Made by a program: the position numbers and the translations under genes
Notes under the pieces: model-generated
The model's input: only the letters and a program-made list of their open reading frames with translations
What the model was told of the DNA's origin: nothing
Database searches by the model: none
NCBI RefSeq assembly: GCF_947623445.1
Contig: NC_135244.1
Location: forward strand, 18,476,860 to 18,540,859
From: Clavelina lepadiformis
Lineage: Eukaryota; Chordata; Ascidiacea; Aplousobranchia; Clavelinidae
Direction of reading: 5' to 3'
DNA: 64,000 bases
Shown here: piece by piece, positions 41,312 through 62,681 of the stretch
How positions within the stretch are numbered: position 1 is the stretch's first letter
Layout of the letters: each line of letters starts with the position of its first letter

Positions 41312-43378
41312 TTACAGCTCTTCACTTGGCACGCAAGAGTAATACATTTTGATGAACTTTACCACACCCGAGCATGGATCTCCGAACACAGAGTTCTTGG
41401 GTGACAAGACACAGGAGTTTCGACCCCGGCAGACTCTTTGTACTTTCTCGTTGGAGCCATTTGCTCTGCAGTTGGAGTCGGTTTGACCTTGGCGGCATCT
41501 GAAAGAAAAAGTCTCGAAAGTCACAATGTGTTCCGCTCTAGCTGGTAAAAGTTATATACATCCTTACGTAGTGAGATCGTCTCTCCCGTAAAAAGCATAA
41601 TGAACAATTATGACGTATCCGTCGGGACAAGTGACTGTGAGATCCTTCTCGTGTTCACAAGCAACTGCGAGTCTCTCTTTTTCTGTCGAATAAAAGAGAC
41701 ATTATTTGTATTAGTGTGTGTAGACATGTGTGACGATTCAATGACGTAATTTATATTGAACACGTGATGCACCGGTTGAATCGTCATATATGAATTCCTT
41801 GCGTAACTCGAGAACACAAGTCTCAGCCTTTTATTGTCGTGTCCACTACTTTTTATTTCTCCACGAGCTAGATTGTATACGAACTATCAAATACAGTGGC
41901 TGCAAATCGATGTTTGATAATTACATGAGCTAAATCTATGCTGGTCAATTACAGTAAGTTATGCAGATTATATTTAATCATTAAATGTTCCATTATTTTA
42001 ATTTATGTATTTTAATGTAATTGTAAACGCCAACCAATACCTGTTGGCACGCATTGGTAGACAAGCTTGCTGTATTTCACTACACCAGCACAGGGATCAC
42101 CAAATAGACTGTTTTCGGCTGTCAGCAGGCAAGTGTTTTCATATTGACAGTTGTTTTTGATGATTGATAAAGAATTCTCGGCTTTACAATTAGTGTTTGT
42201 ATTGTAACCGCATCTTTATCAAACAAAAACAACAATGCAGTGTAATTCTGATATGATCTCTAATACTAGGCCCTTAATCAACTTAACAAACTGCAGATAC
42301 CGTTTTAAGAAAGCTAAAGCCAATATATACTTGTCACTTTCCAGTCGTCCATAAAACGCGTCTATTACATCGATTCGAAAGTACTCTGGGCATTGTACTT
42401 GCACCGGAGATTGATGTTCGCAAGCATACGTTGTTCGCTTTTCTGAAACTGTAAATATTAAATTCTATCGTCTTCTTTAATGCGGCAGAAAATTAATTTT
42501 AAACTAACTTTTTGTTCTACAGTATTCAATGTTTGCATTAACAAACTATTCTACGTTATAGAGAAGGAAATTACATAAGCATCACCACGGTAGGAATAGG
42601 TAAACTACATGTTCTAGTCGAAACCTGGTGCATGAGAAAGATGGGGTAGGCTATGTAAGTTATCACTAAAGTATCAAGTGGAATTCGGAAAATATACAGA
42701 GAAAATAAAAATAAAAACCTGCTGGTAAGCAATCGTAAACAAGCTTGATGTATTTTACCACTCCCCGGCAGGGGTCACCAAACACAAGGTTGCTGGCTTC
42801 CAGTGAACAGGAATTTTCACCTTGACAGTTTTGTTTGATGACAGTAAGGGAATTCCCCGCCTTGCAATTGGCGATTGAGCTCGAACCGCATCTGTTTAAA
42901 ATTCAAAAACAATCTTGTTTAGACAGATGACTCAGTCTAATATAGAGCAACGTATATCTGCCCCGTGCAACTATGAACAGTGATCATACGAGACACCAAC
43001 AAAACCAACTCAAAATGATAATGAGAGAGTTAGCTCTGTGGACCTGTTATGTTCCAGCCGGCCATAGAAAGCATCTATTACATCGATGACGTAAAGACTT
43101 GGACACTTCACTCGCACCGGTGTTTCATGTTCACAAGCAAACGTTGTCACCGACGCATCTACACGAAGGGATAAAAATTACAAAAAACTTTGTCTTGTGC
43201 CACAACTTAGATCTTAGACTACACACTAGCTAACCATAAAATCAGAACTAAACAATACTTTATCAAAATAGAAATTAAGCTTAGTGACATCGTTATTCAA
43301 AACAATTTACTTACTAGTTCGCTCTGGTGATAAAAGGATAATGACCGCTGAGAAAAATATGCAAACTTTAAAATTCAT
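41312..43378 (-). CDS. Secreted rhamnose-binding (SUEL-type) lectin with three domains, lectin gene 1
   Basis: Exons 43315-43378, 43044-43158, 42719-42891, 42331-42442, 42041-42213, 41568-41682 and 41312-41498 total 939 bp, 312 aa, with correct phases throughout. Exon 1 encodes a hydrophobic signal peptide (MNFKVCIFFSAVIILL). Three SUEL/Gal_Lectin domains follow, each from two exons. Each has eight Cys, an ACEH start, a YGR motif ending the first exon and FGDPC..VVK(Y/F) near the end of the second. Glu after the first Cys and Asp of DPC are positions the family uses for sugar contact. Domains 1 and 2 are of one type (AFYGRLE..(R/K)CG); domain 3 is the C-terminal type (YGRDDLTT..C). By family knowledge it should bind L-rhamnose or D-galactose on microbes or eggs outside the cell. 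It lies just left of the duplicated segments. Confidence 0.93.
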
Positions 43379-44578
43379 ACTTGTCTATAAATGAATACTA
43401 ATCTAACGATGATAACAATATAAGGTTGAGTTTTTTGTTTATTTTACGTTTTTTCATTCTGAATAACATTTTTTCCGGCCAAGTTTAATTAGAAAACTAA
43501 ACTAAATTCTGAGCACAAATTGGTTAATTTGTTAATCCCGACCAAACGTTTGAATTCTTTTAGAGGCAATATACAATTTTAATCTAAATAACGTAACAGA
43601 CTGACAGTCTTGTTTAAGACTCAACTGTTATAACTACCAATTACACTGATGTTTACTTCAACTTTCTGCACGTTGGTGCTTCGACAGTCTTTCACTTATT
43701 AAATTTATTGTTAAAATTTCTTTTATATATGCCTTATTGGTTCCTGTCATTTTTGTACTTCAAACAAAACAAAAACTAACAAAAAGAATATCAACACACT
43801 TTCATCGGCAATGCTTCAACAGGTTTGTGTTGAAAGAAATTTCAATAGGCTCAGAACTTAAAAGACTCTCAATCTTAATAAACTTAGGAGTGTTTTTTAA
43901 AAGATGATGATGCGGAAAAGGAATTGTTTTAAGTGCAAGCCAAACACAACTTACTAGTATATTTTTAACAGGCGAAAAACAGAGACAAAGAATAATTTCC
44001 GACTGGATGGGAAAGAATTTTAAGAACACACATGTTCTGGTATAATTTGTTTGTATATTCGTGTAGCTGGTATTTTTGAAAATTTCTTTATTTACTATAA
44101 GTTTAACACTTGGAAACTGTGGATTATTTTAAAGGGGATGAAACCTCGCTTTGGCACCGCCGCTTCACTCGACTTGTCATAGCTACGAAAATAATTGATT
44201 CAAAAACAGTTTGCTTGACCTATATGACTTGCATAAGCGGGCACATTCTATGTATTATAAAAACTATGAGTACTGTACACTATATAACCTTCGACGACTA
44301 TATCACATATAGTTTGACCCTGTCACATTTTGTAAGATTTTCAAAAACGTTTTAAACTTTATAATGTGGCACTTTCGTTTTTTTGCTCCGTGTTACGACC
44401 TGCTTGTGCAAAAATAAAATAACTTGTTACAAAAAAATCACTTTTAGTGACAAATGCACAAAAACTGATAACGGATCAACCTACGTTTGCTTGTGTTTCA
44501 TTAGCTGTGTAGGCTACCCTGTCCAAACGTGTAGAGAGGACAAGTTTTCAAAGACAAATTTCTTTTGCTACAGATGCA

Positions 44579-44584
44579 TTTATT
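44579..44584 (-). promoter_or_regulatory. Candidate poly(A) signal of lectin gene 2
   Basis: On the minus strand the sequence reads GGTAATAAATGCATCTG, about 120 bp past the stop codon. The same AATAAATGCATC block follows lectin gene 3, the inverted copy and lectin gene 6. Confidence 0.6.
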
Positions 44585-44700
44585 ACCAGCAGTTGCTTTA
44601 GTTATAAATCAGCACAACCATTCCATGATGTAATATTTCATATAAGCAATCATGTTGCGAAGGCATAATATTAACACATGAAAGGTTTCATTCCTGCCTC

Positions 44701-45976
44701 TCAGTGGTATTGGGGGATGCAGGAGTAATTCATCTTAATGAACTTGCGGACTCCACGACACGGATCGCCGAACTTTGAGTTTTTAGCCCAGAGAACACAA
44801 GAATTTTTATAATCACATGCATGGCGTATTTTCTGATAAGAGCCCTTTGCTTTGCAGTTGGTGTTCGTTTCGTGGTATCGGTAGCACCTGAAGAGTAGAA
44901 AATCAAAATGAAAAATCAAATGTGCGTCCTTATACTCTACAGCATTGTTTTTAACCTGTACTTCTACTAGGACAACTTTTGTTACACACTTTTAGTTCAA
45001 CTTGTCAAGCCAAAATTTATATCTTACGTAGTAAGGTCGTCTCTTCCGTAAAAAGCTTGAAAAACCCTTATGACGGTTCCACGAGGACACGACACGGTGA
45101 CGTCAGCTTCGTGCTCACAGGCGATAGCAACTCGTTCTTTCAATGAATAAAAAAATCAACTTTTCAAATCTTCAGCTACTTTTAGTTGGTGTAAGCTTGT
45201 TATCACACCAATTAGTTTATATAAACAACTCAGTATATGAGAATACAAGGAAAGGTACCTTTCTAACATACTGTATTTCTAATTCATATCAATCATTTTA
45301 TCTAGTAGTAAACTATATGTTGTGTAATTTTCTTTTAGTGTTTTAATATCTGCTGCAAAAGCAAATACCTATAGGCACGCATTGATAGACCAGCTTGATG
45401 TATTTCACCACTCCGTGACAGGGGTCGCCAAACACACTGTTGTGTGCTTTCAAAACGCACGAGTTTTTATTTTGGCAGTTTTTTTTGATTATAGTCAAAG
45501 AGTTTCCGGCTTTGCAATGGTCGTTTTTATTCCAGCCACATCTAAACAAAATATGCAGTGCAGTAAAATAGTTAAAAAAGTGTTTTATTATTACTTGTTC
45601 TTTTCACTACTTACGCAGGGTATAACTAATCATCGGCCTGTCATACCTATCTTTCTCTAGTCGACCATAGAAAGCATCTTGCACATCGATGACGTAATGG
45701 GCTGGACAACTAACTCGGACAGGAGTTTGATGTTCACAAGCAAACCGTGTATGCTGGGTTGCATCTGTGCAACCAAAGTTAAACGGAAATGATTTATACT
45801 GACAAGACTTAAATAAGAAATTGACCGAACAACACAAAAAACATGGTTATTAATGTATTAATGTTTGTTTATATCAAACATGTAAACTTTTGCAAGGAAC
45901 TAATATTGTAAAAGTTACCTGTCCAGACTGGCAATAGAAACAAGACGACAGAAATAGTCTTAAAAATTACACTCAT
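44701..45976 (-). CDS. Secreted rhamnose-binding (SUEL-type) lectin with two domains, lectin gene 2
   Basis: Exons 45919-45976, 45647-45764, 45369-45541, 45028-45136 and 44701-44887 join to 645 bp, 214 aa. The signal peptide ends in LPVWTG. Domain 1 has the eight Cys, YGRLEKDR, CGWNKNDHCKAGNS and FGDPCHGVVKYIK; domain 2 is the C-terminal type with YGRDDLTT and FGDPCRGVRKFIK, ending at TGA 44701-44703. It is the copy-A counterpart of lectin gene 3 but lacks that gene's middle domain. Exon 3 looks chimeric: its 5' part matches exon 3 of gene 3 and its last part plus the following intron match exon 5. The acceptor of exon 4 has changed from CAG to CATTG; the next AG, six bases on, keeps frame. 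Both canonical sugar-site motifs are intact. Confidence 0.9.
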
Positions 45977-46389
45977 TTTCAAGGGTAGATCTATACGAAA
46001 AAGTTCAACAAAGCTATCGAAGCGATTTAGCCTAACATGACAAAAACAAAAGCTTTAATTTGCTGGTTTCCATTCTCTTCAGGCCCAAAGCTGTCTCACT
46101 AAAGACAGGAATTTTGATTTGGGAACGTTTACGCTTATAACCTTCGCTTAAACAATTCATTGTATTTTATCATAATTTACCAGCTTTTCGTTAGAATGAC
46201 AAAGTTTACCTGCAGACGAAGAGTCATGCAAACTTTATCTTGATCAAAAACCTATTCTCTGACCTCCTCTGCAGCGTTGCGGCTCAATATAAAGGCGCTT
46301 CCACGTCAAAAGTATTTTGTTGTGTTTCTTTCATGTCCCGGGCTAATCCCTGACCTTGCCTATATACATTAATTATTATATTGGCACTG

Positions 46390-46510
46390 TAATTATTCGA
46401 AATTATTCTCAAGAGCATGTTACAGCCATCATGAAATTTCTTTAAAAGTGTTATTAAATTCATGTCACAGCCATCATGAAATGTTCTTAAAATTATAATT
46501 AAATACATAT
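46390..46510. repeat. Short tandem repeat in the upstream region of lectin gene 2
   Basis: CAGCCATCATGAAAT occurs twice at about 57-bp spacing, within a repeated block that also has ATTAAAT(T/A)CATGTCAC-like sequence. Copy B (52.30-52.37 kb) has one unit fewer, so the repeat has changed in number since the segmental duplication. Confidence 0.6.
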
Positions 46511-49500
46511 CACATATTGATTTATACTTGCTTATTAAATTTCGTGAATTTATTTCTGTAATCATCTCATATAAAACTGCATTAATTGCCTTCAAATAAA
46601 TTTTGTAATTAAATACTTAAAAATACTTTTATATAATATGTTATAATGACAACATATACGGAGGTCAAGACAGAAAAAACAAAGTCTGGAGCCAAGGCAA
46701 TGGTGATAATGGATAAGCGTGAAACGGTAAACTAAATATAGATCAACCACAAACTATAGCATTAACCTGAAGTTTTTCACCAGTAAATATCAACTTAACT
46801 TGCACTGATTAAATTACTCAGTGCTTCGGTTAATTGTCTATCTGAAATATACAATCATATTTGTATGGGCATTCCCCACACAATAAATATCTTTATAACC
46901 TTACACAATGTAAATATCTTGTTGCTGTCAACTATAAGTTACTGAGATTAAAAATGGCCAAATTTAATTGTTAGTTCCTTCAAAGTTCACCACCAATAAC
47001 AAAGAAGTGTCAGCATAATAAAGAATTTGTTATGCATATGCATTTGGATTTGCAATTCAGTATTTTAGTTTTCTATTGATATCGGCAAAAGATCTAAGCT
47101 AGCTGTATTTTTTTTTCAAATGCACAAGGAAAATATCACCTTGGCTAAATTTGTATAGTATGTTCGTAAAAAGCAAAATCTGGCAAGGATTCTTTAATGA
47201 GGCAAGGAATCTTGATGCTTCGCGGGTGTTAACCCAATATCATGATGATGACGTACTTATTGCTCATGCTTTGTTTCAACTTTGCTATTTACAATATTTT
47301 TCAAACTATATGCTATTATTTCCAGTCAAAGACTATATCATACTGCTGAAAACGGTTAATTTAAATAGTTCAACGATTTTCGATCGGACGAAATTATATA
47401 ACTGACTTTACGTTGGTAAGCATTTCTCGTTATTTTAATTATGAAAGTATTTGATGTATGCAATACAAATTGTAAGATAAGGCGCAGTGGTTCATTCCTG
47501 TTACACCATCTGTAGGAACCCATTATCTACCATATTGTTTTGAAATTACAAGGTAAGTTTCTAATTTTAAAGCTATATTTGCGATGTAATCATTTTAATT
47601 ACACAGTTGTGCTAAATGATTACAGAGTTGAAGTTGAAATAAAATTATTGTTAGGCACTAATTAAAAGACGATCAACAGTCATAACTTAACACCAATTTA
47701 AATTCAATTCAAACTATGCAATATAAAAAATGTATTTTTGGCAAGCTCTTAAACAAACTACAATTTAATACGGAGTGCGCAATGAAAAATCAATAAAAAC
47801 TGCTTTTATAATGATGATAAGTTAACTTTAAATAAAGCTTTAATAAATTAATTTAATAAATTTAATAAATTTAATAAATTAATAAATTAAATTTTTGCAA
47901 TTTATTTGTATGTAAGATACTTCTGACATCGTATCCGCCACAATACAGAGAGTGTAAGGAATAGAAAGGGTTTGAGTCAAGATCAAAATCAAATGTTTTC
48001 ATCACATTTCCTTCGTTAACGTGTACGGTACACAAATATTGGTTTTAATCAAATAATATGCAAACAATAATTAATATTAATGAATAAATCAAATAATGAT
48101 CAATAAACAAAATATCTGTTTTTGTTTATTTTATGTTTTTTTCATTCTGGATAACATTTTTTCCGGCTAAGTCTAATTAGAAAACTAAACTAAATTCTGA
48201 GCACAAATTGGTTAATTTGTTAATCCCGACCAAACGTTTGAATTCTTTTAGAAGCAAGATACAATTTTAATCTAAACAACATAACTGAATGACGGTCTTG
48301 TTTGACTCAACTGCCATAATTACCGTTTACACTGATATTTACTTTAACTTTCGCCACGTTGGTGCTTCGACAGTCTTTCACTTATTAAATTTATTGCTAT
48401 AAGTTCTTTTATATATGCCTTGTTGGTTCCTGTCATTTTGGTACTTCATAACAAAAAGAAACAAAAAGAATATCAACATCTTTTCATCGGCAATACTTCA
48501 ACAGGTTTGTGTTGAAAGAAATTTCAATAGGCTCAGAACTTAAAAGACTCTCAATCTTAATAAACTTAGGAGTGTTTTTTAAAAGCTGATGATGCGGAAA
48601 AGGAATTGTTTTAAGTGAAAGCCAAACACAACATACTTGTATATTTTTAATATGCTTTTATTTACAGGTGCATTGATGATGTATGGTAATCCTCGATCAT
48701 TCCATGAAATAATAATTAAAATTAGATCATAATTTGATTGTATTTTATAAAATTTCCGTGTAATATCAAACTTGCAGTTTCAATTGAATTTACTTGTGTA
48801 TTACACAAACATAACTGCTTCAGAATAATGCACAAGACATGATCGTTATCATTTTTATCATATCATTATGATCTATTCCCAATAGACAAAGTAATATTTA
48901 ACCTGCTTTTAAAACATTTCGTTATGCAATATTTCATTTCTCCCAAATTTTGTATAATTTTCTTAGTCGTTTAACTTAACTGGATTTGTCCGAGAATGGG
49001 CGACCAGTTACAAATAGCAAGAAAACATTGAACATCAAACAAAAATTTTGTTTTTCATGAACGAATCTTTATAAATTAGGCTAATTACACCATATATGCT
49101 TGCGTCATTCAATTTATAGAAGAGTAAATCTCGCTTTGATCTCAAAGTAAAACCAGTAATAAGATTAAAGATATTTATGTGATTAATGTGAATTACTGCC
49201 TTTGGGAAAGCCCCTATAACTTTCAAGACCAAATATGGATAACATGTGAAAAACAGAGATAAAGAATAATTTCCGAATGGATGGGAAAGAATTTTAAGAA
49301 CACACATGTTCTGGTATAAATTGTTTGTATATTCGTGTAGCTGGTATTTTTGACAATTTGTTTATTTACTATAAGTTTAACACTTGGAAACTGTGGATTA
49401 TTTTAAAGTAGATGAAACCTCGCTTTGGCACCGCCGCTTCACTCGACTTGTCATAGCTACGAAAATAATTGCTTCAAAAACAGTTTGTTTGACCTATATG

Positions 49501-49858
49501 ACTTGCATAATATTTTGAGCGAACACATTAAGCATTATAAAAACTATGAGTACTGTACACTATATAACCTTCGACGATTGTATCACATATAGCTTAATCC
49601 TGTCACAGTTTTTAAGATTTTCAAAAACATTTTAAACCTTATCATGTGGCAGTTTCGTTTTTTTGCTCCGTGTTACGAGCTGCTTGTGCAAAAATAAAAT
49701 AGTTTGTTACAAAAAAATCACTTTTAGTGACAAATGCACAAAAACGTATAACTGATCAACCTACGTTTGCTTGTGTTTCATTAGTTGTGTAGGCTACCCT
49801 GTCCAAACGTGTAGGGAGGACAAGTTTTCAAAGACAAGTTTCTTTTGTTACAGATGCA

Positions 49859-49864
49859 TTTATT
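49859..49864 (-). promoter_or_regulatory. Candidate poly(A) signal of lectin gene 3
   Basis: Minus-strand AATAAATGCATCTG about 115 bp past the stop codon, in the same position as for lectin gene 2. Confidence 0.6.
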
Positions 49865-49977
49865 ACCAGTTGCTTTAGTTATATATCAGCACAATCATTC
49901 CATAACGTAATATTTCATATAAGCAATCGTGTTGCAAAGGCGTAATATTAACGCATGAAAGGTTTCGTTCCTGCCTC

Positions 49978-51877
49978 TCAGTGGTATTGGGGTATGCAGG
50001 AGTAATTCATCTTGACGAACTTGCGCACTCCATGACACGGATCGCCAAACTTTGAGTTTTTAGCCCAGAGAACACAAGAATTTTTATAATCACATGCATG
50101 GCGTATTTTCTCATATGAGCCGTTTGCTTTGCAGTTGGTGTTTGTTTGTGCGTATCGGTAGCACCTGAAGAGTAGAAAAGCAAAATGAAAAATCAAATGT
50201 GCATCCTTATACTCTATTAATAAAATTATAATATTATATATATAATTATATAATATTAATAAATCTATTATTATACGCATTATTTTTAACCTGTATTTCT
50301 ATTAGGACAACTTTTGTTACACACTTTTAGTTCAACTTGTCAAGCTAAAATTTTTATCTTACGTAGTAAGGTCGTCTCTTCCGTAAAAAGCTTCATAAAC
50401 ACTTATGACGTATCCATGAGGACACGACACGGTGACGTCAGCTTCGTGCTCACAGGCGATAGCAACTCGTTCTTCCTCTGAATAAAAAATTCAACTTTTC
50501 AAATTTTCAGTTATTTTTACTTGATGTAAGCTTGTATACACCAATTAGTTTATATAAACACCAACTCAGTATATAAGAATACAAGGAAAGGTACCTTTCT
50601 AACATACTGTATTTCTACATCATATCAATCAGTTTATCTTGTAGTAAGCTATATGTTGTGAAATTTTCTTTTAGTGTATTGATATCTGCTGCACGAGCAT
50701 ATACCTATAGGCACGCATTGATAGATCAGTTTGATGTATTTCACCACACCACGACATGGGTCGCCAAACACACTGTTGTGGGCTTTCAGCGTGCAGGAAT
50801 TTTCGTATTGACAATTTTGTTTGATCTTGGAAAGAGAACTTCCCGCTTTGCATTGATCATTTGCATTCCAGCCGCACCTGATTAGAACGCATATTATCAT
50901 TATCTTTATTTTTAAAAGCAGTATATACACAGTTATAGATTTTAAGTCTGTTTTATTAATTAATATGTTGTATAGATTACCTGTCTTTTTCCTGTCGACC
51001 GTAAAACGCGTCTATCACATCGATTACGTAGTATTCTGGACATCGAACGTGTTCCGGTGTTTCATGTTCACACGCATAAACTGTTTGAGTTTCTCCAAAG
51101 TATAGCTCTGAACAAAGAAAGTAAAACAATTCTTTAACCAAGTAAGTAGTGGGAAAAGCTAATTGTAGATGTAGTTGTTTTGCTATTTGCACATGACTAT
51201 GGATTGTAGACTGTATATCAACGTTTTCTATACATTCAATTTATGCAAACAACAAAGTAAGTGAAATACCTTCTGGCACACACTCGTAGACAAACTTGAT
51301 GTATTTTACCACTCCGTGACAGGGGTCACCAAATACACTGTTGTGTGCTTTCAAAATGCACGAGTTTTCATTTTGGCAGTTTTCTTTGATTATAGTCAAA
51401 GAGTTTCCGGCTTTGCAATGGTCGTTTTTATTCCAACCACATCTAAACAAATCATACAGTGCAGTAATATAGTTAAAAAAGTGTTTTATTATTACTTGTT
51501 CTTTTTCACTACTTACGCTGGGTATAACTAGTCATCGGTCTGTCATACCTATCTTTCTCTAATCGACCATAGAAAGCATCTTGCACATCGATGACGTAAT
51601 GAGCTGGACAACTAACTCGGACAGGAGTTTGATGTTCACAAGCAAAACTTGTATGCTGGGTTGCATCTGTGCAACAAAAGTTAAACGGAAATGATTTATA
51701 CTGACAAGACTTAAATAAGAAATTCACCAAACAAGACAAAAATCATGGTTAATAATATATTATGGGTGTTTATATCAAACATGTAAACTTTATCAAGGAA
51801 CCAATATTGTAAAAGTTACCTGTCCAGACTGGCAATAGAAACAAGACGACTGAAATAGTCGTAAAAATAACACGCAT
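49978..51877 (-). CDS. Secreted rhamnose-binding (SUEL-type) lectin with three domains, lectin gene 3
   Basis: Exons 51820-51877, 51549-51666, 51270-51442, 50981-51107, 50705-50877, 50363-50477 and 49978-50164 total 951 bp, 316 aa, all with GT-AG borders and matching phases. A signal peptide ending LPVWTG is followed by three eight-Cys SUEL domains with YGRLEKDR/FGDPCHG, YGRQEKDR/FGDPCRG and YGRDDLTT/FGDPCHG. Domain 2 has a slightly longer N-terminal exon (LYFGETQTVY before ACEH). It is a close paralogue of lectin gene 2, from which it differs mainly by the extra middle domain. Expected role, from the family: soluble, multivalent sugar binding and agglutination outside the cell. Confidence 0.93.
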
Positions 51878-54800
51878 TTTCAAGGGTAGATCTATATGAA
51901 AAAAATCAACAAAGCTATCGGAACGATTTAACCTGACAAAAACAAAAGCTGTAATTTGCTGGTTTCCACTCTCTTCAGGCCCAAACTGTCTCACTAAAGA
52001 CAGGAATTTTGATTTGGGAACGTTTACGCTTATAACCTTTCTTTAAACAAGTCATTGCTTTTTATCATAATTTACCAGCTTTTCGTTAGAATGACAAAGT
52101 TTACCTGCAGACGAAGAGTCATGCAACCTTTATCTTGATCAAAAATCTATTCTCTGACCTCCTCTGCAGCGGTGCGGCTGAATATAAATTCGCTTCCACG
52201 TCAAAGGTATTTTGTTGTGTTTCTTTCATGTCTGGGGCTAATCCCTGACCTTGTCTATATCCATTATTTATCTTATTGGCACTGTAATTATTCGCAATTA
52301 TTCTCAAGGACATGTCACAGCCATCATGAAATTTCCTTAAAAGTGTAATTAAATCCATGTCACATATTGATTTATACTTGCTTATTGTTGCTCAAATAAC
52401 TAGGGCAATGCTATTAAATTTTTTCCTATCGATTTCGTGAATTGATTTCTGTAATCATCTCATATAAAATTGCATTAATTGCCTTCAATTAAATTTTTTA
52501 ATTAAATACTTAAAAGAACTTTTATATAATATGGTATAATGACAACATATACGGAGGCCAAGACAGAAAAACAAAGTCATGAGCCAAGGCTATGGCGATA
52601 ATGGATAAACGTGAAACGGTAAACTAAATATAAATCAACCACAAACTATAGCATTAACCTGAAGTTTTAAACCGAAAAATATCAACTTAATTTTCACTAG
52701 ATAAATTACTCAATGTTTCAGTTAATTGTCTATCCGGATTATACAATCGTATTTGTATGGGCATTCCCCACATAATAAATATCTTTATAACCTTACACAA
52801 TGTAAATATCTTGCTCCTGTCAATTATAAGTTACTGAGATTATAACTGCCCAAGTTTAAATTGTTATTTCTTTCAAAGTTCACCATCAATAACAAAGCAG
52901 TGTAAGCATAATAAAGCGTTTGTTTAGAGTATTTGGGTCTTCTATAGGTATCTACAAAAGATCTAAGCTAGTTGTAATTTTTCTTCAAATGCACGAGCAA
53001 AATATCACCTTGACTAAATTTGTATAGTCTAATCGTTAATAGCAAAATCTGTATTAGAATAACTTATAGTCATTTCAATTGGCGCAACTATTATTGCCTG
53101 CTTATTTTATAATTATCATTAAATGTGATTGCGTGATTAGAAAAAAAAGATTTATTACAAGCGCCTTTAGATAAGTAAGTATCTTATCATTTAAAAAATG
53201 TATTATGTATTAAATAGCAGTAATTGGCTACAAGTATGAAAACCAACATTATTTTAAGTGGGCGTTACAGAACATTTAATCCGGTTATTTATGAACAATC
53301 TTTAAATAAAATATAACAAGCAATACTAGATAATAATGACAAAGCAGTTATATAAGTGCGACTGGTGGTTAATTACTGTCCTCTCGTCGTGATTAGAATT
53401 AAACCAACTGACACAGCGATACAATAGTTTTTAAAAGGGAGATGAAAATGTGAAGAGCCTTGTAAGTGACAAAAAGACGTATTACAGAACACGAACTAAT
53501 TCATACTTGCTCGAAATCATATCTGAGTTCCCAAAAGTTCTATTTTCGAAACAATGTTTCTCAAAAGAAGCACTTTTTATAGCAATTGTAATGTACAGTA
53601 TATATACTTAACTTGAGATGCACTCGGTATAACTTTAATGGTGTAAAATAGATTTTGATGGGATTTATTCGCTCATAAAAAAGCAAAACGATGCGATGAA
53701 AGATTTTGAATCATATAGCAATTTGTAAAGTGTCAAGAAGTGTGATGATCTGTGAAAATCAGTGTTTCACTTTCTGTGCAATGTGAATTCGCATGAATAT
53801 GTTCTTGAACTATACGAGTAGTATTGTTGTTTTAGCATAAACTTAATGCACTTAACACACAGTAGCTGGAAATAATATTTATATTGATTTTCATCGGTCA
53901 ACTACATATTGTAACAGTCGACTGTTTCTTTGAACTCCTAGACTAAAGTTGCACTTCATTTTTTATCAAGTATTTATAGACTGATGAAACTTTTAGTTCA
54001 ATATTTAGTAAATCATGCATTGTTTGCCGTTTTCTAATGTTTTGTTACGTACAAATGTAATAATGACGTATAATAATTTTATTTTTTCACATACAAGAAT
54101 AATTTTATAATGAATTGGTAGAAAGTGGAAATGTGTTTGTGAACTATCTTGCTTAAAATGTTGATAATAATGTTCTATACATCCTGTGGAGATTAACTTA
54201 CTTGGACGGTTGGTGACGTTTGTCGATTGTTAGGCAATATTTCAAAATATATATTAATTTTATAAGTCGAACATCTTTAATGCTAAGGCATTTTAGTTCT
54301 AACGTCTTCAACTGAAATCGTTTATTGATTCTTCCTATGAGTTTTGCTCTTGCGTGCGGTAAATCACGCCTTGATAAAAAGAGGGTGATTTCGTTAAAAT
54401 TCCACTATATAAATGTTTCTTGTTGTATCTTTTTCTTAGCTCCTATAAATCTTAGTTAAACGACATTAGTTTGTAAGATGATAAAAGTACAAGGCACTAA
54501 AATATAAATGACAATTTCACCAAATTTTGGTGGTGACTAATGACTATATAGGGTTATAGTTGTTAAATTGTATGCTTTGTGTATAGGCCTATTTTTAAAA
54601 TTTTCAGAAAATGTTGTTTTGTAAACAGTCTCCTGAAAATGCTTCCAGGTTATGCCAAAAAATAAAAATAAAATTTCAAAAAAAACCTGGTAATCGTGAT
54701 TTTTATGCCATGTTGTTGTTAAGAGTTTTGTGTTTCGTTGGACTTTTTTACAACATGTGGATACACGTAACAGATATATATGATATAAATATCACAGAAA

Positions 54801-55752
54801 TATGTTTGTATACACGAGTATCTAACGAGGCAAGGAATCTTTATGCTTCACTGATGTTAACTCAATATCATGATGATGACGTACTTATTGCTCATGCTTC
54901 ATTTCAACTTTGCTATTTACAACATTTTTTAAACTATATGCTATTATTTCATGTCAAAGATTATATCATACTGATGAAAACGGTTAATTTAAATAGTTCA
55001 ACGATTTTCAATCGGACGAAATTATATAACTGATTTTACGTTGGCAAGCATTGCTCATTATTTTAATTAATGTATTTGATGTATGCAATACAAATTGCAG
55101 GATAACCCATCCACTTCAGATAAGATAATGCGCAGTGCTTTCTTCCTGTTACACAATTTGTAGGCGCCCATTATATACCATATTTTTTTGAAATTACAAG
55201 GTAAATTTCTAATTTTAAAGCTATTTGCGATATAATCATTTTAATTATACAGTTGTGCTAAATTATCACAGAGTTCAAGTCGAAATAGAATTATTGTTAA
55301 GCGCTTATTAAAAGACGATCAAAAGTCATAACTTAACACTAATTTGATTTTAGTTCAAACTATGTAATATAAAAAATGTATTTTTGGCACGCTCTTAAAC
55401 AAACTACAATTTAATACGGAGTGCACAATGAAAAATCAATTAAATTGGTTCGATAATGATGATAAGTTAAGTATAAAAAAAGCATAAATTAGCTTTTTGC
55501 AATTTATTTGTATATATAGGATACTGTTGGCATCAGTAACTTCATATCCGCCAAAATACTGAAAGTGTAAGGCATAGAAAGGGTTTGGGTCAAGATCAAA
55601 ATAAAATATTTTGATCAAATCTCCTTCTTTATAAACGATAAACGTTTCATTTGCATTTTATATTCTGTATATGTGGGCTAGATTCGGGCGGAGATGTTAA
55701 TCCTATCATTAATTTGCTAATTTCGTTTATGTGACATTCAATGCAGTTGCAG

Positions 55753-56089: not shown

Positions 56090-56920
56090 CAATGCAGCAC
56101 ATACAAATTTTGTTTGTGAATATCAAACTTCTGTCCGAGCTAGTTGCACAGCTCATTACGTCATCGGTGTGAAAGATGCTTTCTGTGGACGATTGAAAAA
56201 AGACAATAACTAATAAGTTATTTATTGTTTATGAGATTTCAAGCCTGTCACATTAATTATTATCTAACGTGAGCTATAGTAAAACACTATATTATCAACC
56301 CTCGATTACACTGACAATAATTTAGATGCGTTTTTGGTTACCCATAATATGGTGTGAAGAAATACTTCAAACTGGTCTACAATTGTGTGCCAAGTATGTA
56401 GCTTATATTAATAATTTTAAATAGTAAATTCATATTAAAAATAAAATACAGATTTTTGCGGAGGGAACGTAACTAATGCAGCTATAACCGAAGTAAATCA
56501 TGTATATTAACACCGTAAAGCCACTCTTTCGATTTATGTAGCCTAAATACTTGTAGCGTTAAGTTTACTGGTTTATAATATTAGCCTACATTTTAGAGAG
56601 AAGAGTTGCCATCGCTTGTGAGCACAAAAGTGACGTAAAGGTGAAATGTCCTCATGGATACGTCATAAAAGTTTATGACGCTTGTTTCGGGAGAGACGAC
56701 TTTACTGAACTATATGCAATTTAATTTTCTTAGATGCTATCGATACCACAAACCAAACACCAACTGCAAAGCAAAAGGCTCTTATGAGAAAATACGCCAT
56801 GCATGTGATTATAAAAATTCTTGTGTTCTCTGGGCTAAAAACTCAAAGTTTGGCGATCCGTGTGGTGGAGTGCGCAAGCTCGTCAAGATGAATTACTCCT
56901 GCATACCCCAATACCACTGA
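56090..56920 (+). pseudogene. Decayed inverted copy of a two-domain lectin gene (lectin gene 4)
   Basis: Relics follow the order of lectin gene 2 but on the plus strand. At 56092-56210 a domain-1 first exon has lost its acceptor AG and its donor, and the YGR motif reads CGR. At about 56325-56397 the second exon has lost most of its middle and has a stop; only RC and FKLVYNCVP survive. At about 56598-56701 a C-terminal-type first exon has FGR in place of YGR and no donor. At 56734-56920 the last exon is intact, with FGDPC and the normal end (IPQYH, TGA 56918-56920). No signal-peptide exon is seen. The 3' flank matches that of lectin genes 2 and 3 in reverse orientation, so this is an inverted segmental copy. 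Confidence 0.85.
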
Positions 56921-60300: not shown

Positions 60301-60430
60301 AAAATAATTCATGTATTTCACAATATGAATTTGGATAAAAAAAAATTCAGCTTTTTTATTTTTGTTAGATTTTTTGACTTTAATAATCAGCTTCGGTTGT
60401 TAAAGTTTTGAAGGTTGCTTTATAGTTAAA
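57313..60430. other. Gene-free stretch within the lectin cluster
   Basis: No lectin domain or other family is recognised. A frame of 62 codons at 57868-58056 has no supporting motif. Two diverged, similarly worded blocks lie near 59.58-59.67 and 59.86-59.96 kb (both contain AAAAGAAC.AAA, GCAAACAT and ATATTTAC), probably an old repeat. A short direct repeat of ACAAGTCCAAAAAT lies near 59442-59481. Confidence 0.45.
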
Positions 60431-61079
60431 ATGCGCCAAATCTTTACGACGTTTGCTCTCATCCTGGCTGTACTGCCAGTCTGGACAGGTGATATGTTAC
60501 TTATTAATAACCTTTACATGTTTCATTAACAGCTTCTAAAATAAAAATATTGATGATTTGCTCTGTTCATTTAAGGGCAATCGTAATTACATTCCATTAA
60601 TTACTTAGTAATTTGACTCACGAAGCATTACTCCAATATCAGGTGCAGTCCAGCGTACAAATTATGCTTGTGAGCATCAAACTCCGGTTCGAGTCCGTTG
60701 TCCAGCTCATTACGTCATCAATGTCAAATATGCTTTCTATGGTCGATTGGAAAAATCCAGGTGTAATAAATTAGGTCTTTTACGAAATAAATCTATATAA
60801 TGTATAAACCTATCATGCACATATATAATGTGAACAATATATAACAATGTCAATGACATGGTGAATAAACAATACTTTACTATTGACCATTTCAGATGCG
60901 GTTGGAACGAGAACAATCATTGCAAAGCAGGAAACTCTCGTTCAATTATCAAACAAAACTGCCAAAATGAAAATTCCTGCTTACTAAAAGCAGAAAACAA
61001 TATATTTGGTGATCCGTGTGGTGGTGTAGTTAAATATATCAAGCTCGTCTACGACTGCGTACCAGCAGCAGGTATGTAA
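60431..61079 (+). CDS. Signal peptide plus one SUEL-type lectin domain (lectin gene 5, or alternative 5' part of gene 6)
   Basis: Exons 60431-60488 (signal peptide ending LPVWTG), 60643-60760 (ACEH..CPAHYVI..AFYGRLEKSR) and 60896-61071 (CGWNENNHCKAGNS..FGDPCGGVVKYIK..CVPAAG). The domain has all eight Cys plus YGR and DPC. Exon 3 ends with a good donor, but reading through it gives Met and a stop at 61077-61079, a 119-aa single-domain lectin. If the donor is used, its phase-1 end fits the lectin exon at 61674, skipping the next signal-peptide exon. That would give a 317-aa three-domain protein like genes 1 and 3. It lacks a C-terminal-type domain of its own, so I favour the joined form, but sequence alone cannot decide. 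Confidence 0.82.
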
Positions 61080-61429
61080 AAATGTTTTTCGGTAAAAAGT
61101 TTTGTGAAACCAGATTTTTCAAAACTTAACATCATTTTTTTATTATTAACCAACACAACAAAAGTTATCACATTTTTTATAACAATTTTGTATTAAAAAA
61201 GAACCAGAAGGAGACTGATTTGACCGTTTGCAGCCTTTTCCAAATTTTTCTCATACCACCTACGCCGTGATTGACGTTTTAACTGCGTAGAACTGGCGCA
61301 AAAAAAATTGAATAGCTCATTAGTTAAATTTAAAATGAAACTAAAACCAGCTCGATGAAATAAGGTTTTTCTGACAGGATTTTTTTGATATTTAATTGTT
61401 AGAGTTTTGAAATTTGCTTTACTCTTAAA

Positions 61430-62681
61430 ATGCATCCAAGTTTTCTGGTGTTTCCTGCAGTGGTTATATTTCTAGTCTGGACAGGTGATAGGTTACATTT
61501 TGTATGAATTATAATCTTCATGTGTTTCAAAAATTCCATTTTTGTTTATCATCGTTTCATTCATTTAGAAAAATGTTTGATTTGTTTTCTTATATTTTGT
61601 GATTGGGAGCATCCGGTGTTTTATTCTGTCAACCATATTCACTAATTTCAATGAGTGACATTGGTCCTCTTAGGTGTTATCCGTACAAGTTTTGCTTGTG
61701 AACATCAAACTCCAGTCCGAGTTACTTGTCCGGCTCATTACGTTATCGATGTGAAATATACTTTCTATGGTCGACAGGAAAAAAGCAGGTCTAACAAATT
61801 ATTCCGATCTTTCTTGTGATAAAATTGTCTTTGTCATGTAGATCGAACTATCCTGAAATATAAATTATACTTGACTATCGACTATAAATCAGATGCGGCT
61901 GGAATGACAACAATCGTTGCAAAGCTGCGAATTCTCCATCGATCATCAAACGCAGCTGCCAACATGAAAACTCGTGCTTGTTGCGAGCGGAAAACGGTAT
62001 ATTTGGTGATCCCTGTGGTGGTGTGGTTAAATACATCAAGTTCGTTTACCAATGCGTACCAGCGGCAGGTATGTTGTGTATATTGTAGTTACAAATACGA
62101 AAAGACGACACAAAGCAAAAAAGTAATTAATAAGTGCAAGAAAAAGCTTAACGTGTTAAGTGATTTCTATACAAGAGATTCCTCTTTGTGAGTTTGCCCA
62201 TTTTCGATCCGTGTACGTTGTTCTCCAAAAAGTCTGGCACAACCAAAAATTATCTCTTCAGGGAAAAAACGACTTGCCATCGCCTGTGAACATGAACGTG
62301 ACGTGAAAGTGAATTGTCCGTATGGATACGTCATAAATGTTTATGACTCCTTTTACGGGAGAGACGATCTTACTACGTAAGAGGATATTTTTCAGTTTAG
62401 ATTCGAAATTTTGAAAGCAAATCGGTGTTTGTCATTCGAGAATACTGGTTCTCGCTTAAATACTGTAACTTGCCTGTTTTTTTAGATGTTACCGATACAG
62501 CCAAACTAACACCAACTGCAAAGCAAACGGCTCCCATCAGAAAATAGCACACACTTGCGAGCATAAAAATTCTTGTGTTCTTTCGGCCAAAAACTCCGTT
62601 TTCGGTGATCCGTGTGGTGGCGTTCGCAAGTTTATCAAGATGTCCTACTCATGCGTTCCCCAAGCATTGTGGCTGTATTGA
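61430..62681 (+). CDS. Secreted rhamnose-binding (SUEL-type) lectin with two domains, lectin gene 6
   Basis: Exons 61430-61484 (its own signal peptide, ending LVWTG), 61674-61788, 61893-62068, 62262-62376 and 62486-62681 join to 657 bp, 218 aa. Domain 1 has ACEH, YGRQEKSR, CGWNDNNRCKAANS and FGDPCGGVVKYIK; domain 2 is the C-terminal type with YGRDDLTT, CYRYSQTNTNC and FGDPCGGVRKFIK, ending ALWLY and TGA. All introns have GT-AG ends with the phase pattern of the other lectin genes. The region upstream of ATG 61430 resembles that upstream of ATG 60431 (GTTTTGAA..TTGCTTTA..TTAAAATGC), as expected if a first exon and its promoter were duplicated. The 61.4-kb exon has no acceptor, so it can only be a first exon. 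Confidence 0.9.

What the first reader, a model, noticed from the sequence alone, without database searches (positions are those of the whole stretch)
45369..45541. Chimeric lectin exon marks the exact event that removed or added a whole domain
Exon 3 of the two-domain gene 2 begins like exon 3 of the three-domain gene 3 (CGWNKNDHCKAGNSLTIIK). It ends like that gene's exon 5 (YQCVPIG), and the following intron also matches the intron after exon 5. The switch lies at about 45408-45420, near the GATGTATTTCACCAC / TCCGTGACAGGGGTC junction on the plus strand. Since both exons share homology and phase, unequal exchange within the exon would delete the middle domain in frame; the reverse gain is also possible.
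Basis: seen in the sequence. Interest (0 to 1): 0.75.

Follow-up and report, generated by a model that had tools for sequence, protein, structure and literature searches.

The report
Lectin gene that lost one domain
In a sea squirt, one copy of a sugar-binding lectin gene most likely lost its middle domain through an exchange between two look-alike exons, leaving a readable hybrid exon that still records the join to within about 30 bases; it is a clean example of a known process.

Summary
The window is chromosome 5 of the sea squirt Clavelina lepadiformis. Gene 2 (two SUEL / L-rhamnose-binding lectin domains, 214 aa) and gene 3 (three domains, 316 aa) are tandem copies about 7-9% diverged in non-coding DNA. 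The first 130 bp of gene 2 exon 3 are 95% identical to gene 3 exon 3 (75% to exon 5); the last 43 bp are 95% identical to exon 5 (77% to exon 3), and the next intron matches gene 3 intron 5 (91%). The best switch is 45412/45406 (95% sets within 45385-45415; permutation p = 6e-5). The loss equals 565 bp of gene 3, 300 coding nt, in frame because both exons are 173 nt with equal phases. Three further paralogues have three domains, and gene 2 carries the D2-type tail. Both exon parts have since diverged about 5% from gene 3, so it is not an assembly join. Unequal exchange inside the exon is the most likely route. The same process is published for spider toxin Hc3a: a new, well-resolved member of a known kind.

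The parts
45369..45541 (-). Gene 2 exon 3: chimeric exon, 173 nt, enters in phase 2 and leaves in phase 1
   Evidence: Informative-site pattern, identity and permutation tests; splice sites ttag/gtattt
45385..45415 (-). Switch interval (widest 95% set; best between 45412 and 45406): exon-3-like 5' of it, exon-5-like 3' of it; inside the DPCHG|VVKYIKLVYQC stretch
   Evidence: D1/D2 diagnostic site 45384 just beyond it; residue position worked out from the exon lengths
45412..45541 (-). Part of the exon descended from D1 (95.4% to gene 3 exon 3)
   Evidence: tree of this part, 98% ultrafast bootstrap with gene 3 D1
45369..45411 (-). Part of the exon descended from D2 (95.3% to gene 3 exon 5)
   Evidence: tree of this part, 89% with gene 3 D2
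45137..45368 (-). Gene 2 intron 3, counterpart of gene 3 intron 5 (91%)
45919..45976 (-). Gene 2 exon 1, signal peptide
   Evidence: protein identical to NCBI-sourced P0003
45647..45764 (-). Gene 2 exon 2, first half of the chimeric domain (D1-type)
   Evidence: 96.6% to gene 3 exon 2
45028..45136 (-). Gene 2 exon 4, first half of the last domain (D3-type); acceptor slid 6 bp relative to gene 3, two codons fewer, frame kept
44701..44887 (-). Gene 2 exon 5, second half of the last domain and stop
   Evidence: 92.5% to gene 3 exon 7
51270..51442 (-). Gene 3 exon 3 (second half of D1), counterpart of the 5' part
50981..51107 (-). Gene 3 exon 4 (first half of D2), no counterpart in gene 2
50705..50877 (-). 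Gene 3 exon 5 (second half of D2), counterpart of the 3' part
50748..51312 (-). 565 bp of gene 3 absent from gene 2 when the join is placed at 45412/45411 (43 + 127 + 130 = 300 coding nt)
   Evidence: Exon coordinates; sums
41312..43378 (-). Gene 1, intact three-domain paralogue (outgroup)
   Evidence: identical to P0004
60431..62681 (+). Gene 5, three-domain paralogue in my model (its D1 and D2 are mutually closest; the nearest database protein, P0005, stops after D2)

Best explanation
Gene 2 began as a three-domain copy of the same tandem pair as gene 3. A non-allelic homologous exchange between its exon 3 (second half of D1) and its exon 5 (second half of D2), pairing in register and resolving about 127-156 nt into the 173-nt exons, removed the end of exon 3, intron 3, exon 4, intron 4 and the start of exon 5 (565 bp in gene 3). 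Both exons have the same length and phases, so any in-register join keeps the frame; exactly 100 codons went and one complete hybrid domain remained (D1 up to about DPCHG, D2 for the final strand). Shown: the switch, its place, the missing domain, the frame. Strongly supported: an older three-domain state. Inferred: that the two partner exons were in one gene (or its allele or sister chromatid), and that recombination rather than replication slippage made the join. The confidence below is for homology-driven loss of D2 with the join inside this exon; partner and route are split among the rivals.
For: Site pattern and tests; identities by segment; equal exon length and phase; 300 nt coding loss and 565 bp spacing; a protein alignment of five genes made without guidance puts the one long gap of gene 2 at DPCH|GVVKY; trees of the two exon parts disagree as predicted, 98% with gene 3 D1 for the 5' part and 89% with gene 3 D2 for the 3' part (split point taken). 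The C-half exons are the longest stretch shared by the D1 and D2 modules of gene 3 (179 bp, 74%; N-half exons 105 bp, 74%; no other match at E 1e-3 apart from intron 3 with itself, which lay in both inputs). D2 is old. Near the gene, divergence from gene 3 is similar on the two sides: non-coding 7.1% against 6.8% (Fisher p = 0.79) with the far 5' piece left out, exons 4.6% against 6.5% (p = 0.31). The product seems constrained: dN/dS 0.17 in the hybrid domain, 0.34 overall (NG86; not tested against 1); mean pLDDT 87; PF02140 twice.
Against: Around the switch the pattern is not perfectly clean: 45535, 45433 and 45427 look like exon 5 inside the exon-3 zone, 45394 and 45390 like exon 3 inside the exon-5 zone. 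Outgroups explain 45390 and most of 45394 as private changes of gene 3 exon 5, but not 45427. With the far 5' flank included the non-coding divergence differs between sides (8.8% against 6.8%, p = 0.043). No reciprocal product, a tandem gene with an exon-5/exon-3 hybrid and an extra domain, was seen among the 27 matches (a lower bound by that tool's own note). The tail tree rests on 43 sites and nine sequences with supports of 75-89, and the gene 5 D2 tail falls with D1 tails there; D2 of gene 3 and chromosome 4 pair at only 60 and 69 in the single-exon trees.
Confidence: 0.9

Rival explanations
1. Gain: gene 2 is the ancestral two-domain form and gene 3 acquired its middle domain, either by self-duplication or by insertion from another lectin gene at the same point of the exon.
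For: The pairwise pattern between gene 2 and gene 3 alone fits insertion as well as loss.
Against: Gene 1, gene 5 and the chromosome 4 gene have three domains; D2 of gene 3 groups with D2 of the chromosome 4 gene (85 in the domain tree without the hybrid; 60 and 69 in single-exon trees); gene 3 exons 3 and 5 differ at 46/173 sites against 8/173 for gene 2 against its counterparts (p = 1e-8), excluding recent self-duplication; the gene 2 tail carries the D2 state at 45384, where all four D1 copies examined have G and all four D2 copies have C.
Confidence: 0.04
2. Fusion of two different tandem copies: 5' part from one neighbouring gene, 3' part from another, with loss of the DNA between them.
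For: The cluster is a tandem array of related genes, and such a fusion would give the same exon. The far 5' flank is somewhat more diverged than the rest.
Against: Near the gene, divergence from gene 3 is alike on both sides of the join, so two equally related partners are needed; one gene alone suffices.
Confidence: 0.15
3. Deletion by replication slippage or single-strand annealing between the two exons rather than by crossing over.
For: An 11-nt run identical in both gene 3 exons (AAATACATCAA, 45405-45395 in gene 2 terms) lies inside the 95% set, just 3' of the best point; another 11-nt run (45444-45434) lies away from it. The end product would be the same.
Against: The sequence cannot separate these; 565 bp spacing and about 74% similarity over 179 bp fit any homology-driven route.
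Confidence: 0.25
4. Artefact: assembly collapse or wrong gene model.
For: Tandem near-repeats are the usual place for collapses.
Against: Both exon parts and the flanks differ from gene 3 by about 5-11%; a false join of gene 3 reads would be near 100%. The assembly is HiFi at 117-fold with QV 67.4, and the gene 2, gene 3 and gene 1 models are identical to database proteins P0003, P0001 and P0004.
Confidence: 0.01

Closest known systems
Spider toxin Hc3a from bivalent Hc1a (Mol Biol Evol 2026, PMC13172734; start of abstract, passages and section 8 seen)
   Same: A tandem two-domain gene lost one domain by unequal crossing over inside coding sequence, at a stretch of high similarity (21/25 bp), leaving a hybrid domain with first half from D1 and second half from D2.
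   Different: There the domain repeat arose within an exon and two domains become one. Here domains are split by phase-2 introns, the exchange is between two separate homologous exons, three become two, and the next intron records the same switch.
L-rhamnose-binding lectins of the SUEL family (CSL3 2zx0, CSL2 9vwi, SUL-I 5h4s)
   Same: Gene 2 matches PF02140 in two stretches and these solved lectins by sequence; CSL3 and SUL-I are also the first two matches by fold.
   Different: Here each domain is encoded by two exons; in snakehead lectin the review (PMC3269628, passages seen) gives three exons per domain. The two-domain form here is a secondary reduction of a three-domain gene.
Fusion genes by unequal crossing over between neighbouring copies, haemoglobin Lepore type (recalled, no call)
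   Same: Misaligned homologous repeats produce an in-frame hybrid and remove what lay between.
   Different: There two whole genes fuse; here, most likely, two exons of one gene.

Membership tests
SUEL / L-rhamnose-binding lectin (PF02140) | SUEL lectin domain above the curated cut-off | tested here: met
   Gene 2: 140.8 bits over two stretches, cut-off 31.4; gene 3: 204.3 bits, three stretches
SUEL / L-rhamnose-binding lectin (PF02140) | Eight cysteines per domain with YGR and DPC motifs (motif set recalled) | tested here: met
   Both gene 2 domains, the hybrid one included, carry eight cysteines, YGR and DPC (counted by eye in the protein)
SUEL / L-rhamnose-binding lectin (PF02140) | Binds L-rhamnose or D-galactose | not testable with these tools
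   Needs expressed protein
Domain loss by homologous exchange between repeated exons | Sharp swap of best match from one repeat to the other, continuing into the next intron | tested here: met
Domain loss by homologous exchange between repeated exons | Join in register, frame kept, missing length equal to the repeat spacing | tested here: met
   300 coding nt and 565 bp of gene 3
Domain loss by homologous exchange between repeated exons | Ancestral state had the extra repeat | tested here: met
   Three-domain paralogues and D2 grouping, within one genome only; no outgroup species
Domain loss by homologous exchange between repeated exons | Reciprocal product (extra domain, opposite hybrid exon); expected at the time, not required to survive | tested here: not met
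   None seen among the 27 matches; the chromosome 2 gene with four second-half exons is distant (40-48% identity; layout)

The most novel reading that the evidence does not exclude
The second-half exons of D1 and D2 exchange sequence repeatedly in this lectin cluster. Short tracts are converted (gene 2 and gene 3 share a D2-like KAHNS patch in D1), and crossovers change domain number, so that lectin valency in this sea squirt is labile and may still vary between individuals.
Probability: 0.25. Interest if true: 0.5.

Novelty: new member of a known kind. Interest (0 to 1): 0.32.

Why it matters
It is an unusually readable case of how a protein loses a whole domain in one step: counterparts of both partner exons, an intact sister gene and three-domain relatives survive in one genome. 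It shows that equal exon length and phase make such a loss frame-safe wherever the exchange falls in the exon. For lectins, domain number sets how many sugars one molecule can bridge, so the pair gene 2 / gene 3 offers a natural test of valency.

Tried and rejected
Recent gain of D2 in gene 3 by self-duplication: rejected, exons 3 and 5 of gene 3 differ at 46/173 sites. Gene conversion of the exon tail without deletion: rejected, the D2-type sequence continues through the intron and D2's first-half exon is absent between the hybrid exon and D3. Assembly join: rejected on divergence and assembly quality. Pseudogene 4 (56100-56920) as a second case of the same loss: no D2 first-half exon was found in it, but its remnant of a second-half exon scores 75.8% to gene 3 exon 5 and 73.0% to exon 3, and its next intron matches none of three candidates above shuffles (z -0.4 to 0.8), so undecided. 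Copies outside this genome: two protein searches showed C. lepadiformis proteins on contigs of other lengths (P0002, P0005), apparently a second assembly, but clusters at 90% identity hide whether it holds gene 2; no collection on hand allowed a search of other animal genomes. Papers: the listings (titles and starts of abstracts only, except the three papers named in the report) show no report of this event or of Clavelina rhamnose-binding lectins; subscription journals are mostly not held. The YN00 estimate for the hybrid domain failed. In one search the far 5' flank was dropped after its higher divergence had been seen; both results are given. The segments compared were chosen by me and skip gapped stretches.

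Full report
What the region is. The window is position 18,476,860-18,540,859 of a 24,617,235-bp contig of Clavelina lepadiformis. The identification rests on database proteins identical to my gene models, named for that species and lying on a contig of that length, and on scaffold lengths in the genome note that equal those of contigs 4 and 8 here (section 5 read). The right part of the window holds a cluster of SUEL / L-rhamnose-binding lectin genes: gene 1 (43378-41312, minus, three domains), gene 2 (45976-44701, minus, two), gene 3 (51877-49978, minus, three), a pseudogene here called gene 4 (56100-56920, plus) and gene 5 (60431-62681, plus, three in my model). In the five gene models each domain is encoded by two exons; introns inside domains are phase 2, those between domains phase 1. 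PF02140 has 34 matches in the genome, 32 over the cut-off, a lower bound.

The observation. Aligned without gaps, the 173-nt exon 3 of gene 2 and exons 3 and 5 of gene 3 give 45 sites at which gene 2 agrees with just one. In coding order they read AABAAAAAAAAAAAAAAAAAAAAAAAABBAAAABABBABBBBBBB (A = exon 3, B = exon 5; 32 A, 13 B). MaxChi places the break between 45412 and 45406 (permutation p = 6e-5, 50,000 shuffles); a random-walk test gives p = 4.6e-4 (200,000 shuffles). A copying model with one switch beats no switch by at least 25 log units at each of four mismatch rates, with 95% sets from 45393-45414 to 45385-45415. The intron that follows matches gene 3 intron 5 at 91.1% over 224 bases; against intron 3 only 100 bases can be aligned, at 64%.

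Sites against a clean break. 45535, 45433 and 45427 are B inside the A zone; 45394 and 45390 are A inside the B zone. With chromosome 4, gene 1 and gene 5 as outgroups, 45390 is a private change of gene 3 exon 5 (six of six others have G), and 45394 nearly so (five of six G). 45427 stays awkward: T in all four D1 copies, C in two of four D2 copies and in gene 2. A later parallel change or a small patch of mixed repair could explain it; I cannot tell which. The cleanest single marker is 45384: G in all four D1 copies, C in all four D2 copies, C in gene 2.

Loss, not gain. Gene 2 against gene 3 alone cannot decide. The other copies can. Gene 1, gene 5 and a chromosome 4 gene (L008:5817-7835) each have three domains, exon for exon; database proteins P0004 and P0002 support the first and the last, while the nearest one to gene 5, P0005, stops after D2. 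A domain tree without the hybrid joins D2 of gene 3 to D2 of the chromosome 4 gene at 85, with gene 1 D2 next at 50; single-exon trees give this pair only 60 and 69. D1 and D2 of gene 5 join each other at 88, so gene 5 supports the domain count but not D2 orthology. In the tree of the last 43 bp (nine sequences) the gene 2 tail joins D2 of gene 3 (89), then chromosome 4 (80), then gene 1 (75), with the gene 5 D2 tail among D1 tails; in the tree of the first 130 bp gene 2 joins D1 of gene 3 (98) (the split point was taken). Gene 3 exons 3 and 5 differ at 46 of 173 sites, gene 2 and its counterparts at 8 of 173. D2 therefore existed long before genes 2 and 3 parted. More distant loci in the genome show one (chromosome 8), three (chromosome 6) and four (chromosome 2) pairs of such exons in the 6-7 kb fetched.

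Mechanism. Between the D1 and D2 modules of gene 3 the exons are what is similar: 179 bp at 74% around exons 3 and 5, and 105 bp at 74% for exons 2 and 4; the only other match was intron 3 with itself, which lay in both inputs. The exchange fell inside the longer of these, next to an 11-bp run (AAATACATCAA) still identical in both gene 3 exons. Coding loss at the best point is 43 + 127 + 130 = 300 nt; the 565 bp is the distance between the paired exons in gene 3. Proteins differ by 102 residues: 100 from the exchange and 2 from a 6-bp shift of the next splice acceptor, where gene 2 has lost the AG used by gene 3. The join falls after codon 102 (computed from the exon lengths), between the short helix at residues 93-96 and the strand at 106-115 of the model, so the hybrid domain has the D1 elements except its final strand.

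Timing. Non-coding divergence from gene 3 is 7.1% on the 5' side near the gene and 6.8% on the 3' side (p = 0.79); including the far 5' piece it is 8.8% against 6.8% (p = 0.043). The two halves of gene 2 thus look about equally old as copies, which fits deletion within one gene after, or about at, the tandem duplication. Fusion of two equally related copies is not excluded.

Is the product in use? The reading frame, signal peptide exon and splice sites are intact and the 214-aa protein is in the databases. dN/dS against gene 3 is 0.17 for the hybrid domain, 0.54 for the last domain and 0.34 together (NG86), which suggests constraint but was not tested against 1. AlphaFold2 gives mean pLDDT 87 and pTM 0.66, with the same order of strands and helices twice. 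Of 16 PDB matches by fold at E <= 0.001, 13 are rhamnose-binding lectins (SUL-I, CSL3) or latrophilin lectin domains and three are unrelated-looking Plasmodium proteins; whole-chain TM-scores are low (0.44-0.46 by query length, rmsd 9-10), probably because the two domains are placed differently, while single latrophilin lectin domains reach 0.79-0.88 by target length. Sugar binding was not tested.

Compared with what is known. A 2026 paper on spider toxins (PMC13172734; passages and section 8 read) describes the same kind of event: Hc3a is a fusion of the two domains of Hc1a by unequal crossing over at a 25-bp stretch of 84% identity. A review (PMC3269628; [quoted passage not shown] The present case is a new member of that kind, with good polarity because the unrecombined sister gene, other three-domain copies and the flanking intron all survive.

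Verdict. Observation confirmed, interpretation supported, direction resolved as loss on within-genome evidence. The mechanism is established biology, so interest is moderate.

Noticed in passing
56100-56920 (+): Degraded inverted lectin copy ('gene 4'): first-half D1 exon, a remnant of a second-half exon at about 56330-56392, then D3 exons; no D2 first-half exon found. Its tail from 56728 is 96.6% identical to gene 3 (92.3% to gene 2), while its first exon is only 86.5% identical to gene 3, so its two ends may have different ages.
   Followed up: partly
61430-61488 (+): A complete second signal-peptide exon (MHPSFLVFPAVVIFLVWTG, phase 1 donor) with its upstream DNA lies between D1 and D2 of gene 5 (60397-60500 against 61396-61496, 74%). 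This fits a partial tandem duplication of the gene's 5' end; D2-D3 could also be read as a separate two-domain gene.
   Followed up: partly
45433-45450 and 51334-51351 (-): D1 of genes 2 and 3 shares a D2-like KAHNS patch; the D1 copies of the chromosome 4 gene and gene 1 have EASN there, gene 5 has KAEN. Looks like an older D2-to-D1 conversion before the two genes split.
   Followed up: partly
45137-45145 (-): Gene 2 has lost the splice acceptor AG used by gene 3 exon 6; the next AG, 6 bp downstream, keeps the frame and drops two codons.
   Followed up: yes
43432-48018 and 48119-55631: The two tandem units. The left match begins within about 60 bp of the start codon of gene 1, so DNA just upstream of gene 1 also exists as a copy downstream of gene 3, without a gene 1 beside it.
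   Followed up: no
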